From contig CANQZG010000008.1 of the NCBI GenBank assembly GCA_947628305.1, forward strand, positions 62,001 to 126,000: a stretch of 64,000 nucleotides of DNA, written 5' to 3'. This DNA is from an uncultured Muribaculaceae bacterium (GTDB taxonomy: Bacteria; Bacteroidota; Bacteroidia; Bacteroidales; Muribaculaceae). A program made the position numbers and the translations under genes. A model generated the notes under the pieces. It worked only from the letters and a program-made list of their open reading frames with translations. It ran no database searches and was not told where the DNA came from. Below, piece by piece: positions 1-7,122 of this stretch. The stretch's first letter is position 1; the number at the start of each line of letters is the position of its first letter.

Positions 1-41
1 GAGGACATGGTCAGTATCTTGTTTCGAGGAGAAATAATATT

Positions 42-1313
42 ATGGCACGAATCAAAACACAAGCAGATTTTGTAGTAAAAGCAAAAGAGATTCATGGTGA
101 TTATTACGATTATAGTCTGGTTGAGTATCACAAGTCGAACGAAAAGGTCAAAATTGTTTGTCCTGTTCACGGGGTATTTGAGCAGACACCGAATAAGCAT
201 CTTGTCGGACAAGGCTGTAAAGTCTGTGGTAAAAACCGTACGAGAGTCGGTTGTGAAGTATTTATAGAACGAGCGATTAAAGTACACGGTGATAAATATG
301 ATTATTCGAAAGTCGTATATACGCGAACCGATGAAAAGGTATGTATCGTTTGCCCGATTCATGGGGAATTTTATCAGACACCGCATTGTCATGTTGTATT
401 GAAACAGAATTGCCCGCAGTGCGCTGCGATTGAAGCAGGACAGAAGCGACGTGGTGAAAATAATGTAATGCGGAAAGAATCTGTGAAAGCAAAAGTTCGA
501 CAGACTTGTCTGAGACGGTACGGAACAAAGACTTATTCTGAATCTGTAGAAGGACGGCAACGTCTGCATGATATTATCAGTGATTCTGATGTGCAGACAA
601 AGATAAAACAGACGTGTTTGAATCGTTATGGTGTCCCTTCGTGGGCACAAAGCGATGAAGGCAAATATGTGTTGCACACAATGATGTCGTCTGAAGCAGT
701 TAAGCAGAGAGTGGTAGATGGGTATATTGCAAAGTACGGTGTTGACCATTACATGAAAACCGAGGAAGGTCGAAAAAAATTGCAAGAAAGTATGCTTGAT
801 GTTGAACATCAGCATAATGCACGGCAAGGACTTATTGATAAATATGGTGTACATGCAGCAGCATTGATTCCCGGTGTGAATGAAAAAGCATGGGCTACGA
901 AACGTCGTAATGGTACTTTTAATACATCAAAACCCGAAGAAACATTGTATGGATTGTTATGTGATGTTTTTGGTTGCGAAGATATTGTTCGACAATATTT
1001 TGATGAAGCGCGATACCCTTTTCATTGTGATTTTTATATTAAGTCTTTGAATATGTTTGTTGAATTAAATGCGAGTTGGACACATGGCGCTCATTGGTTT
1101 GACGAAACGAATCCAGATGATGTGGCTTTGTTGGCTGAATGGAAAAGAAGGGCTTTGCAAAAAGGTTCTTATTACTATCAGCAGGCGATTGATATGTGGA
1201 CTGTTCGTGATTTACACAAACGAGCAATCGCTGAAAAAAATCATTTGAATTATTTTGTGTTTTGGAAACAGGATTTAAGTGATGCGAGAGCATGGCTTGA
1301 AGCCTATCGGTAA
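42..1313 (+). CDS. Homing-endonuclease-like protein (DUF723-type N-terminal repeats, RYG repeats, C-terminal EDxHD/VSR-like nuclease region)
   Basis: Repeated 'AKEIHGDYYDYS..V.Y......V.I.CP.HG.F.Q.P..H....GC..C' units, 'RYG' repeats, C-terminal 'ARYPFHCDFYIKSLNMFVELNASWTHGAHWFD'; followed by a group I intron-like core. Confidence 0.75.
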   Translation: MARIKTQADFVVKAKEIHGDYYDYSLVEYHKSNEKVKIVCPVHGVFEQTPNKHLVGQGCKVCGKNRTRVGCEVFIERAIKVHGDKYDYSKVVYTRTDEKVCIVCPIHGEFYQTPHCHVVLKQNCPQCAAIEAGQKRRGENNVMRKESVKAKVRQTCLRRYGTKTYSESVEGRQRLHDIISDSDVQTKIKQTCLNRYGVPSWAQSDEGKYVLHTMMSSEAVKQRVVDGYIAKYGVDHYMKTEEGRKKLQESMLDVEHQHNARQGLIDKYGVHAAALIPGVNEKAWATKRRNGTFNTSKPEETLYGLLCDVFGCEDIVRQYFDEARYPFHCDFYIKSLNMFVELNASWTHGAHWFDETNPDDVALLAEWKRRALQKGSYYYQQAIDMWTVRDLHKRAIAEKNHLNYFVFWKQDLSDARAWLEAYR

Positions 1314-1329
1314 AAAGTATTTGTCAAGT

Positions 1330-1560
1330 GTAGTCGTCCGTAGTGAAACTGTCAAGTAGACTACGGAGTATGAGTGGAGAATGAAGCGGGAAAAGGGGTC
1401 ATGCCCTAACCCGAGACCGAAGGCAAAGAATAACGGCTTTGTCAGGCGCAACGAGTAGGCGGTGAAACCATAGTTGAGATACTATGGAATATAATCTGTT
1501 CACGAGTCTCCGCTGTCGGACAGTACAGGTGCAGAGCCTGTGGCAAAAATGTATTCTGAA
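1330..1560 (+). other. Probable group I intron core (P7/R-S-like elements)
   Basis: 'gcgcaacgagtaggcgg' (R-like) and 'ggaatataatctgttc' (S-like) in non-coding sequence after the endonuclease ORF. Confidence 0.5.
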
Positions 1561-1703
1561 CTATGTTGTAATGACATAGAAGTACGGATAAAGAGCCGTA
1601 CGGTAACATATTGGAAATATGCGAAATTGGTGCTGATTCTTATTAAACAGCTCGTCGATTTGAACTTCGATTCGTCATATATGACGAAGGCGAATCAGAA
1701 GCC

Positions 1704-1732
1704 TTGAAATTTTTGTTTTGATGTGCTATAAT
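1704..1732 (+). promoter_or_regulatory. SigmaA-type promoter (TTGAAA-17-TATAAT)
   Basis: ttgaaa tttttgttttgatgtgc tataat immediately before the second endonuclease ORF. Confidence 0.6.
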
Positions 1733-1738
1733 GTTCGT

Positions 1739-4950: not shown

Positions 4951-4984
4951 AATTGTGAATTGGGGAAAAGCTGATTGCAAAACC

Positions 4985-5390
4985 CTGTGCAAACCGGTAA
5001 CGGTGTGCATACTATCATCTGTTAAAACCAGTAAAGACCTGAAGAGTTCATTAGCCACAACGTAGCTCGAAAGGGCAGGCGTGACGGTTGCGAAAGCAGA
5101 AAAAAGTAGTGAAATGACGATATGGTGAAATAAAAGCTCGAAAGGGTCCTACGTCGTCATCAACAAGGGTCTGTTTGGTTGCGAATGTCCGTAGCGTAAG
5201 AGCCGGATAACGCTCAACGACTAAAGGATTGCGTCCTTGTTAGCGGCGGAAGCTGATGCCGTGCGCGAAAAATGGATGGTCCCGATTTATCGGGATTGAC
5301 ATATAGTCTCGACACGTCCTGTAATGGGAGTGCTGTGAAATAACACAGAGCTTGTGTTGCGAACAAGTGAAAGGAAGAAAAATATATAAT
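4985..5390 (+). other. Group I intron B, paralog of A (approximate bounds)
   Basis: Shares 'gttgcgaatgtccgtagcgtaagagccggataacgctcaacgact' and 'gttagcggcggaagctgatgccgtgcgcgaaaaat' with intron A. Confidence 0.7.
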
Positions 5391-5525
5391 CGAACTTGCA
5401 GTCAGAAGGACACGGAATTGCTGATTTTCAAACGATGTTGTCCATTGGACTTGGTCAGGAGCAGCAGTTCACACTTATTTTACAGACGCTCCAGCAGTTG
5501 CGAGATGTCTATGGCGTAATGGTTT
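5391..5525 (+). CDS. Internal exon of VirD4/TraG-like coupling protein (approximate bounds)
   Basis: Reads NLQSEGHGIADFQTMLSIGLGQEQQFTLILQTLQQLRDVYG between two intron-like segments. Confidence 0.5.
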
Positions 5526-5529
5526 TATC

Positions 5530-5985
5530 TACAAACCGAGTCGCTGCCTATCTGTAATGGGTGGGTACTATTACGGGAGTTAAAACTGGGAAATGCCTTA
5601 AGAGCCTGTTCGGCTACAGCGTGGCGGGAGACCGCGAGCGCGAGATGCGGCGAAAGCAGAAAGAACAGAACAGGATGACGGCAGGCTGAAATACAAAGCA
5701 GACAATGTTTGCGCTAAACCGTCAGCAACAAGGGCAAGTTCAGTTGCGAATCCTTTGCAGAGATGCGATGGAACGCTTACAGACTGGGGGATTGCGTCCC
5801 CGTAGGGTCGGAAGTCCACAATGCCGATTCGAAAAATACCCGGGGGAATCGCCGGTTATTCGGTAGACCTTAACGTATAGTCGAGGAACCGCTGTAATGG
5901 CGGTAGTCACAAGTTGGACGATGTGGCGAAAGTGTTGACAAAATTAGTTTTCAAACGAACAGTTGAACTAATTTTGATACAGCAT
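5530..5985 (+). other. Group I intron C, related to A and B (approximate bounds)
   Basis: 'gttaaaactgggaaatgcc...gagcctg...gcgtggcgg...gcgaaagcagaaagaa', R-like 'cgcttacagactggggga', S-like 'aacgtatagtcgagg'. Confidence 0.6.
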
Positions 5986-5989
5986 AGGG

Positions 5990-7122
5990 TTTCTAATTCG
6001 GTAGATAAGATTGTGCAGGGCAATACAAATAATATTGTCTTTTTGAAATCCACCGATGACTCGATGATCGACACGCTTGTCAAGATGTCGGGTCAGACGC
6101 ATGAAGTACATCAGGACAGCCTGACTGTCACGAAGGATAAGGAGCGCCTGCTCCTGCCGAACGAGGGCAAGGTGTCTATGACCGTGTCTGTGCAGCAGAC
6201 GTCGGTCCTGAAGTACAACGATTTTGCGTTCCTTCCGGAACGGAACTCCATCGTGTTCAGAGCAGGCGACATGCCGATCCTGAACAGAAACGAAACTATT
6301 ATGCCTATGAGCTGGCGACTGTTCAAGGATACCATCATTCATCCGGGGCATGAGTACAGTCTGCAGACGATCCCGACGTTGTCTTCGGCGAAGGATTTCG
6401 ACGTAAGGCAGAATCAGCCGGACTTCATCAAGATGCTGGATAAGCGTCTGGAGCAGGCGTACCGCGCGGAAGAGTGCAAGACGATCTTCAAGAACGCCTA
6501 CGGCTACGACGACTATCAGATCTCCCGGTTGGATCCCGATAACTACTCGGCGGAAATCATGGAAATGATCGACCGCTGGATCGCTTCGGACGCCGCGGCG
6601 GACGAAGAAGAGGGAGAAGGCACCGTGGAGGTCGTAGACGAAGGCTATGAGGACTTCGACAACGAAGAACAGAAGACGGCTACGGCAGAGGCGCAAAAAC
6701 AGTACGACGACCGGTTCGCGCATACGTATGCAAACGGACTGGTGAGAAGAGAAGATCTTGTCAAGAACGGCATCGTGTCGCACGCGATGGACGTTACGTT
6801 CCTTGAGGTCTTTAAGGAGATCAAGGGCGATCTGTTCAGCGACAAGACGAATTTCTCGGTCAGGGACGGGCAGCTGTACTCGACCGAGGGCAAACCGTAT
6901 ATCGTTCGCGGAAGCGAATCGTCGGAGGGCTTGAAGTCCGTGCAGGAAAGTCTGAAAAACGGTACGATCTACAGCGTCGGCGAAAAGGTCACCGAGGAGG
7001 ACGTCGCGCAACTCTCGACGTTCGTCGTTACCGACGAGTTCTATCGGTTCCTTGTATCGCTTGATCACTGGGATTTCGCACGCGGGCGGTTTGAGGCGGC
7101 GGTCGTTCGTCGACTGTCGTGA
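5990..7122 (+). CDS. C-terminal exon of VirD4/TraG-like coupling ATPase (ORF track start 5914 is intronic)
   Basis: 'NSVDKIVQGNTNNIVFLKSTDDSMIDTLVKMSG...YNDFAFLPERNSIVFRAGDMPILNRNETIMPMSWRLF' resembles the C-terminal region of TraG/VirD4-like proteins. Confidence 0.55.

What the first reader, a model, noticed from the sequence alone, without database searches (positions are those of the whole stretch)
1..7122. VirD4/TraG-like gene fragmented by a cluster of group I introns
Non-coding blocks at about 1330-1560, 2940-3250, 4540-4950, 4985-5390 and 5530-5985 each contain R/S-like P7 strands (e.g. cgctcaacgactg / gacgcatagtctgaac). Between the last ones sits a small exon encoding NLQSEGHGIADFQTMLSIGLGQEQQFTLILQTLQQLRDVYG, continuing in the final exon as NSVDKIVQGNTNNIVFLKSTDDSM. 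At least five introns plus three endonuclease ORFs in or beside one gene is exceptional for a bacterial gene.
Basis: partly seen in the sequence, partly recalled or inferred. Interest (0 to 1): 0.82.

Follow-up and report, generated by a model that had tools for sequence, protein, structure and literature searches.

The report
Conjugation gene cut by six introns
In an unnamed bacterium the only detected gene for the VirD4/TraG conjugation motor is interrupted by six self-splicing-type (group I) introns, leaving exons as small as 10 bases, and relatives of this gene elsewhere are invaded by group I introns, group II introns and inteins, so it looks like an arena for self-splicing parasites.

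Summary
The gene begins 2.9 kb upstream of the window and carries six group I introns, not five. Introns I2, I3 and I4 each hold an endonuclease ORF behind a near-perfect promoter at the intron's 5' end. Without the introns, seven exons (1031, 1413, 91, 26, 10, 124, 1133 nt) form one 1276-residue VirD4/TraG protein with intact Walker A and B motifs, 57% identical to an intron-free homologue. Rfam's general model misses all six. A covariance model built only from other organisms' introns finds five (E 5e-25 to 3e-4); a second finds I2 (E 2e-63), whose helices, P3 and P7 included, covary. I4 and I5, flanking the 10-nt exon, are sister introns at similar target sites, so the tiny exon probably arose by a local intron jump. 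I1's closest relative found sits at the same codon in Virgibacillus, which points to homing. Other relatives of the gene carry group I introns, group II introns or inteins at overlapping sites. Splicing itself is inferred, not shown. Phage genes with up to three introns are known; six in one bacterial gene, and three kinds of self-splicing element in one gene family, appear new.

The parts
1..1613 (+). Intron I2 (1655 nt; starts upstream of the window at about -41, L002 15959): group I intron of a second class, with endonuclease ORF 42-1313 and core 1330-1607; site CATTTGAT|..TTG|GAAATATG (HL^MKY)
   Evidence: R2 model built without window sequence: 218 bits, 2e-63; covariation in P2,P3,P4,P6,P7,P7.1,P7.2,P8,P9; 12-bp P1/P10 duplex, 5 of 1000 shuffles
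42..1313 (+). Endonuclease ORF of I2 (423 aa), DUF723/DUF7487; N-terminal zinc-finger-like repeats, C-terminal nuclease-like domain
   Evidence: Pfam, PHROGs endonuclease/homing endonuclease, weak Vsr-like fold match
1614..1704 (+). Exon 3 (91 nt): KYAKLVLILIKQLVDLNFDSSYMTKANQKP
   Evidence: Colinear with intron-free homologues L006 and L034
1705..3255 (+). Intron I3 (1551 nt): endonuclease ORF 1718-2875 and core about 2940-3250; site AAGCCT|..GTG|CTTTAT (P^L)
   Evidence: R1 24 bits, 3e-4; P7 GACUA/UAGUC; groups with the second intron of L058 in the tree, support 0.965
1718..2875 (+). Endonuclease ORF of I3 (385 aa listed; start probably the ATG near 1739)
   Evidence: DUF7487, PHROGs HNH/homing endonuclease
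3256..3281 (+). Exon 4 (26 nt): LYKTRFMLD, Walker B region
   Evidence: Colinear with homologues
3282..4955 (+). Intron I4 (1674 nt): endonuclease ORF 3353-4528 and core 4540-4955; junction GGA[T]..TTG[T]GAA uncertain by 1 nt
   Evidence: R1 78.5 bits, 5.5e-18; 82% identical to I5 core, support 0.999
3353..4528 (+). Endonuclease ORF of I4 (391 aa)
   Evidence: DUF7487, PHROGs HNH/homing endonuclease
4956..4965 (+). Exon 5, 10-nt microexon TGAATTGGGG (with flanking bases encodes D-E-L-G of Walker B)
   Evidence: Required for the DELGN motif of the intron-free homologues; lies exactly between two group I introns
4966..5392 (+). Intron I5 (427 nt, no ORF); site GGGG|AAAAG..AATCG|AACTTG (G^N)
   Evidence: R1 106.5 bits, 5e-25; DNA similarity to introns of split phage genes, 6e-12
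5393..5516 (+). Exon 6 (124 nt): NLQSEGHGIADFQTMLSIGLGQEQQFTLILQTLQQLRDVYG
   Evidence: Colinear with homologues
5517..5989 (+). Intron I6 (473 nt, no ORF); site GGCG|TAATGG..AGGG|TTTCTAATTCG, 3' end the least certain
   Evidence: R1 54.1 bits, 7.5e-12; groups with an intron of L083, support 0.98
5990..7122 (+). Exon 7 (1133 nt) with the stop codon
   Evidence: Colinear with homologues
1..7122 (+). Window part of the gene; exon 1 (L002 13127-14157), intron I1 (L002 14158-14545, 388 nt, in Walker A GKG^Q) and exon 2 (L002 14546-15958) lie upstream of the window (window 1 = L002 16001)
   Evidence: I1: R1 69.4 bits, 1.1e-15; PF02534 in exon 2; only PF02534 match in the genome

Best explanation
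This is a functional VirD4/TraG coupling-protein gene of a conjugative-type element, interrupted by six group I introns. Shown here: six structured introns that match independent covariance models, seven exons that join in frame into one intact protein, three endonuclease ORFs each behind a promoter-like site, and related introns at the same or other sites in relatives of the gene. Inferred: the introns splice themselves out of the mRNA (each upstream exon runs into an in-frame stop soon after its 5' splice site, so no full-length protein can form without splicing); the endonucleases cut intron-free alleles and let introns home when conjugation brings plus and minus alleles together; I4 and I5 are a local duplication in which an intron reached a second, similar target site (TTGGA versus TTGGGG) about 10 nt away, which created the 10-nt exon.
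For: R1, built only from phage and relatives' introns, finds I1, I3, I4, I5, I6; in 21 loci of the gene family it hits all five intron-bearing loci and none of the 16 others (13 uninterrupted, 3 with inteins). R2, built from L058 and L084, finds I2 at 2e-63. In the I2 class all 56 pairs form in all three sequences, 21 with changes on both sides, 0 of 500 shuffles. Joined exons: 3828 nt, one terminal stop, 57% identity over 1164 aa with no frame break at any of six junctions. The gene is the only PF02534 match in the genome. Core DNA matches introns in split phage genes such as DNA polymerase III alpha, nrdE and lysins. The three best promoter matches of the region (12/12, 11/12, 11/12, spacer 17) lie at the 5' ends of I2, I3 and I4. 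Tree: I4+I5 0.999; I1 with the Virgibacillus intron at the same site 0.95.
Against: No RNA data. P1/P10 pairing is beyond chance only for I2 in this gene, and U(-1) plus a terminal G cannot both be placed in I1, I4, I5 and I6. I3 scores only 24 bits. The I6 3' junction adds two residues compared with homologues. Introns that need proteins or have decayed cannot be told from active ones by sequence.
Confidence: 0.9

Rival explanations
1. The gene is a decaying pseudogene: the introns are dead remnants and no spliced product is made.
For: Six introns in one gene is a heavy load; I3 is divergent; noncanonical 5' splice sites in four introns. No transcript data.
Against: Every exon is intact, all six junctions keep the frame, Walker A and B are complete, and the C-terminal exon stays open for 1133 nt. 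All three endonuclease ORFs are full length. A 95%-identical exon-2 protein, cut at about the same two sites, is known from other contigs.
Confidence: 0.08
2. Some of the blocks are not group I introns but another structured or self-splicing element, I2 in particular, which Rfam and R1 miss.
For: I2 has no Rfam group I hit even alone and only 11.8 bits with R1.
Against: The I2 class has covarying P3, P4, P6, P7, P7.1/7.2, P8 and P9 in group I order, with the P3/P7 pseudoknot topology, a U at -1, a terminal G and a 12-bp P1/P10 duplex. No group II signal here, though the same tool finds group II introns in relatives.
Confidence: 0.04
3. The exons are translated as separate polypeptides that assemble, so splicing is not needed.
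For: Split ORFs in the metagenome catalogue often start near the MWTRE or MVINDPKGEL methionines after the introns.
Against: Exons of 10, 26 and 91 nt cannot plausibly make separate proteins, and they encode Walker B.
Confidence: 0.02

Closest known systems
Multi-intron phage genes: Twort orf142 (three introns, exon skipping; Landthaler and Shub 1999, cited in PMC11878797) and Bastillevirinae polymerase/terminase genes (up to three introns, a small exon, exon skipping; PMC11878797)
   Same: Group I introns of the phage type, several in one gene, small exons
   Different: Six introns rather than three, a bacterial conjugation gene rather than a phage gene, at least four intron lineages, a 10-nt exon
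Staphylococcal phage P68/StB20/85 lysin-gene introns
   Same: DNA-level similarity of core and 3' domain with I5; same P7.1/P7.2 layout; the P68 and StB20 lysin genes are annotated as split around an HNH endonuclease
   Different: HNH endonuclease rather than DUF723/DUF7487; different host gene
Bacterial group I introns in protein genes (flagellin, recA, nrdE: PMC3984707; dsrA in Thiomargarita, IA2, related to staphylococcal phage introns: PMC4853749)
   Same: Group I introns in bacterial protein-coding genes, likely of phage descent
   Different: Those reports describe few introns per gene; here six, in a conjugation motor gene
Introns and inteins in relatives of the same VirD4 gene (Virgibacillus L052, Evansella L061, IMG/VR L083 and L084, Clostridia MAG L058, Actinobacteria L015/L057)
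   Same: Same gene family, overlapping insertion sites, related group I introns; I1 site shared with L052 and I5 site with L083
   Different: Most of them mix group I with group II introns, or carry an intein instead

Membership tests
Group I introns | Conserved core P3-P8 with P3/P7 pseudoknot | tested here: met
   R1 hits for I1, I3-I6; P3 and P7 covary in the I2 class; P7 differs by compensatory changes between subtypes GAGUA/UACUC, GAUUA/UAAUC, GACUA/UAGUC (sequences)
Group I introns | Exact removal restores the host gene | tested here: met
   3828-nt open frame, 57% identity to intron-free protein
Group I introns | 5' exon ends in U paired with G, intron ends in G, P10 with 3' exon | tested here: inconclusive
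   I2 and I3 have U(-1) and terminal G; I1, I4, I5, I6 have terminal G but a purine at -1 or a 1-nt conflict; duplex beyond chance only in I2
Group I introns | Guanosine-initiated self-splicing | not testable with these tools
   Needs RNA experiments
Rfam Intron_gpI RF00028 | Score over gathering cut-off (50 bits) | tested here: not met
   None of the six; best 17.1 bits. The model is insensitive to these subtypes; it does find an nrdD intron on the same contig
Group II introns | Domain 5 / D1D4-5 match | tested here: not met
   None in 1-6500; found in relatives L052, L061, L083, L084, L058
VirD4/TraG coupling proteins | PF02534 domain, Walker A and B | tested here: met
Homing endonucleases (DUF723/DUF7487, Vsr-like) | Family match; nuclease fold; cleavage of intron-free site | tested here: inconclusive
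   Families met; fold match to Vsr weak, probability 0.75, E 0.61; cleavage not testable

The most novel reading that the evidence does not exclude
The VirD4/TraG gene of this family is a general arena for self-splicing parasites. Because each conjugation mixes intron-plus and intron-minus alleles of exactly this gene, homing is favoured, and group I introns, group II introns and inteins pile up at its Walker A, Walker B and other conserved motifs. New sites arise by short local jumps that leave exons of about 10 nt, and splicing or exon skipping (joining I3's 5' site to I5's 3' site drops 36 nt in frame and removes Walker B) could gate conjugation.
Probability: 0.35. Interest if true: 0.82.

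Novelty: new variant of a known kind. Interest (0 to 1): 0.66.

Why it matters
Bacterial protein genes with group I introns are considered rare (PMC3984707, PMC4853749), and the phage genes reported in the papers read hold up to three. A bacterial gene with six, of several lineages, with a 10-nt exon, tests how ribozymes splice accurately across tiny exons. Finding all three kinds of self-splicing element in one conjugation gene family suggests that conjugation, like phage recombination, drives homing. In practice, all six introns are invisible to Rfam's general model, so intron-split genes are probably being annotated as fragments or pseudogenes in other genomes.

Tried and rejected
Rfam gathering and E-value scans: do not detect the introns reliably, a limit of the model. 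Searches of about 495 genomes of relatives and class for the exon 2 protein: only the window's own genome, so the element is rare in sampled relatives. R2 in 395 genomes of the order: one marginal extra hit. Pattern searches for I2-like cores in viral contigs: chance matches only, apart from L183, which is the L084 contig again. Plasmids for intron I4/I5 DNA: none. Phage collection for the VirD4 protein: none. Papers combining TraG, conjugation, group I introns and homing endonucleases: none held. P1/P10 statistics as proof of splice sites: rejected for I1 and I3-I6, not beyond chance. Structure model of the I2 endonuclease: low confidence (pTM 0.33), used only as a hint.

Full report
What is there. 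The window is bases 62001-126000 of a 151-kb contig in an unnamed bacterial genome. Taking the upstream stretch (L002) and intron-free homologues (L006 Nocardiopsis, L034 Lachnospiraceae, and others), the gene has seven exons of 1031, 1413, 91, 26, 10, 124 and 1133 nt and six introns of 388, 1655, 1551, 1674, 427 and 473 nt. Joined, the exons give 3828 nt with a single terminal stop, 1276 residues, 57% identical over 1164 residues to the Nocardiopsis protein and 48% to the Lachnospiraceae protein, without a frame break at any junction. Walker A (TRAGKGQT, cut by intron I1) and Walker B (FMLDELGN, cut by I4 and I5) are complete only in the joined frame. It is the only PF02534 match of the genome.

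Are the blocks introns, and of which kind? Two independent models reverse that. R1 was built from seven introns outside the window: staphylococcal phages P68, StB20, 85 and F1, Evansella L061 (two) and IMG/VR contig L083. Over 104 kb it gives I5 106.5 bits, I4 78.5, I1 69.4, I6 54.1, I3 24.0, then an Rfam-positive intron in nrdD at 18.8, then I2 at 11.8. In 21 loci of the same gene family it hits all five intron-bearing loci and none of the 16 others (13 uninterrupted, 3 with inteins); the introns it hits that were not used for training are in L084, L052, L058 and a further one in L083. I2 belongs to a second class with relatives in L058 and L084. A model from those two (R2) scores I2 at 218 bits, E 2e-63. 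A search for covarying helices in the three sequences gave P2, P3, P4, P6, P7, P7.1, P7.2, P8, P9 and an L2-P8 contact: 56 pairs, all formed, 21 with changes on both sides, 0 of 500 shuffles. P3 and P7 are in the pseudoknot arrangement that defines group I. The structure was derived from the same three sequences, so the R2 test is the cleaner evidence.

Known relatives. I5 DNA matches sequences lying between the halves of split phage genes: Lactococcus phage AM1 DNA polymerase III alpha (6e-12), Enterococcus phage phiEF17H ribonucleotide reductase (1e-8), staphylococcal lysins. The introns are therefore of the phage type, IA-like with P7.1/P7.2.

Endonucleases. I2, I3 and I4 each contain a full-length ORF of the DUF723/DUF7487 type matching phage endonuclease families. 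The three best promoter matches in 5.85 kb (12/12, 11/12, 11/12, all with 17-nt spacers) lie at or just inside the 5' ends of these three introns, ahead of the ORFs. An AlphaFold model of the I2 endonuclease is of low confidence; its second fold match is Vsr endonuclease (probability 0.75, E 0.61), a hint only.

How it came about. A tree of intron cores puts I4 with I5 (82% identical, support 0.999), I1 with the Virgibacillus intron at the same codon (0.95), I6 with an intron of L083 at another site (0.98), and I3 with one in L058 (0.965). I2 is a separate class. So at least four lineages entered the gene; one pair arose locally. I4 and I5 sit at TTGGA and TTGGGG, and their guide sequences (UCCUG and CCCUG, by eye) differ by one base, so a jump to a near-identical site about 10 nt away explains the microexon. 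That step is inference.

A hotspot for all kinds. The fragmented homologues in protein catalogues end and start at recurring positions: of 120, 26 end at NQKP|L (I3 site), 8 at HLM|K or LMK|Y (I2), 5 at DELG|N (I5), 8 at VYG|E (near I6), 9 at AITAM|S, and 13 start at GKG|Q (I1). The length limits of that search exclude intact proteins, so this is no estimate of frequency; intact homologues are common. Relatives' DNA shows what the interruptions are: group I introns (L052, L058, L061, L083, L084), group II introns, two of them with endonuclease ORFs of phage type instead of a reverse transcriptase in the stretch examined (L052 8278-10210, L061 4529-6637), and about 1-kb inteins in Actinobacteria (L015, L057) at VDKIVQGN. 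Small exons recur: about 33 nt in L058 and L084, and roughly 15 nt between a group II and a group I intron in L061 (by eye).

Splice sites. I2 and I3 have the usual U before the intron and G at its end. In I1, I4, I5 and I6 the protein frame fixes the junction to within one or two bases, and a terminal G then leaves a purine at -1; in I5, in L061 (LR^DVYG) and in L083 (DELG^N) no U can be placed without altering the residue. A short guide (C/U)NCUG just 5' of P2 pairs with the exon through a G-C or A-U pair at -1 in the I4/I5/I6 subtype. This is suggestive only, since pairing of I1 and I3-I6 is no better than shuffles, although an L083 intron (12 bp) and the L061 LR^DVYG intron (10 bp) are.

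Limits. Nothing here shows splicing, cleavage or homing. The element carries a MobL relaxase, but its transfer is not shown. Group I intron classes were assigned by similarity, not by a formal subgroup test.

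Noticed in passing
window 56424-59413 (-): nrdD (anaerobic ribonucleotide reductase) is split by what look like two more group I introns: 58294-58533 (RF00028, 71 bits) and a second at about 57390-57915 with a short GIY-YIG-like ORF and P7 ATCGACTA/ATATAGTC.
   Followed up: partly
window 24043-29595 (+): An 1850-aa protein with RNA polymerase Rpb1 and Rpb2 domains in one chain, on the same contig as a MobL relaxase, D5-like primase (12593-14257), RecD2 and UvrD helicases.
   Followed up: no
window 55504-55634 (-): A tRNA-like match (34.6 bits) 131 nt long with roughly 60 extra bases and an encoded CCA end; ARAGORN calls no tRNA in the window.
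   Followed up: no
L061 4480-7000 (Evansella clarkii): A group II intron carrying a DUF723-type endonuclease ORF, followed by a small exon of roughly 15 nt and then a group I intron, near the AITAM site of the same gene.
   Followed up: partly
L052 8278-10210 (Virgibacillus sp. AGTR 4): A group II intron whose ORF matches phage HNH/homing endonuclease families instead of a reverse transcriptase.
   Followed up: no
window 4955-4990, 5505-5530; L061 7865-7900; [quoted passage not shown]
   Followed up: partly
L015, L016, L027, L057: Actinobacterial homologues carry an intein-like insertion at VDKIVQGN, a few residues from the I6 intron site (L016 and L027 by gap size only).
   Followed up: partly
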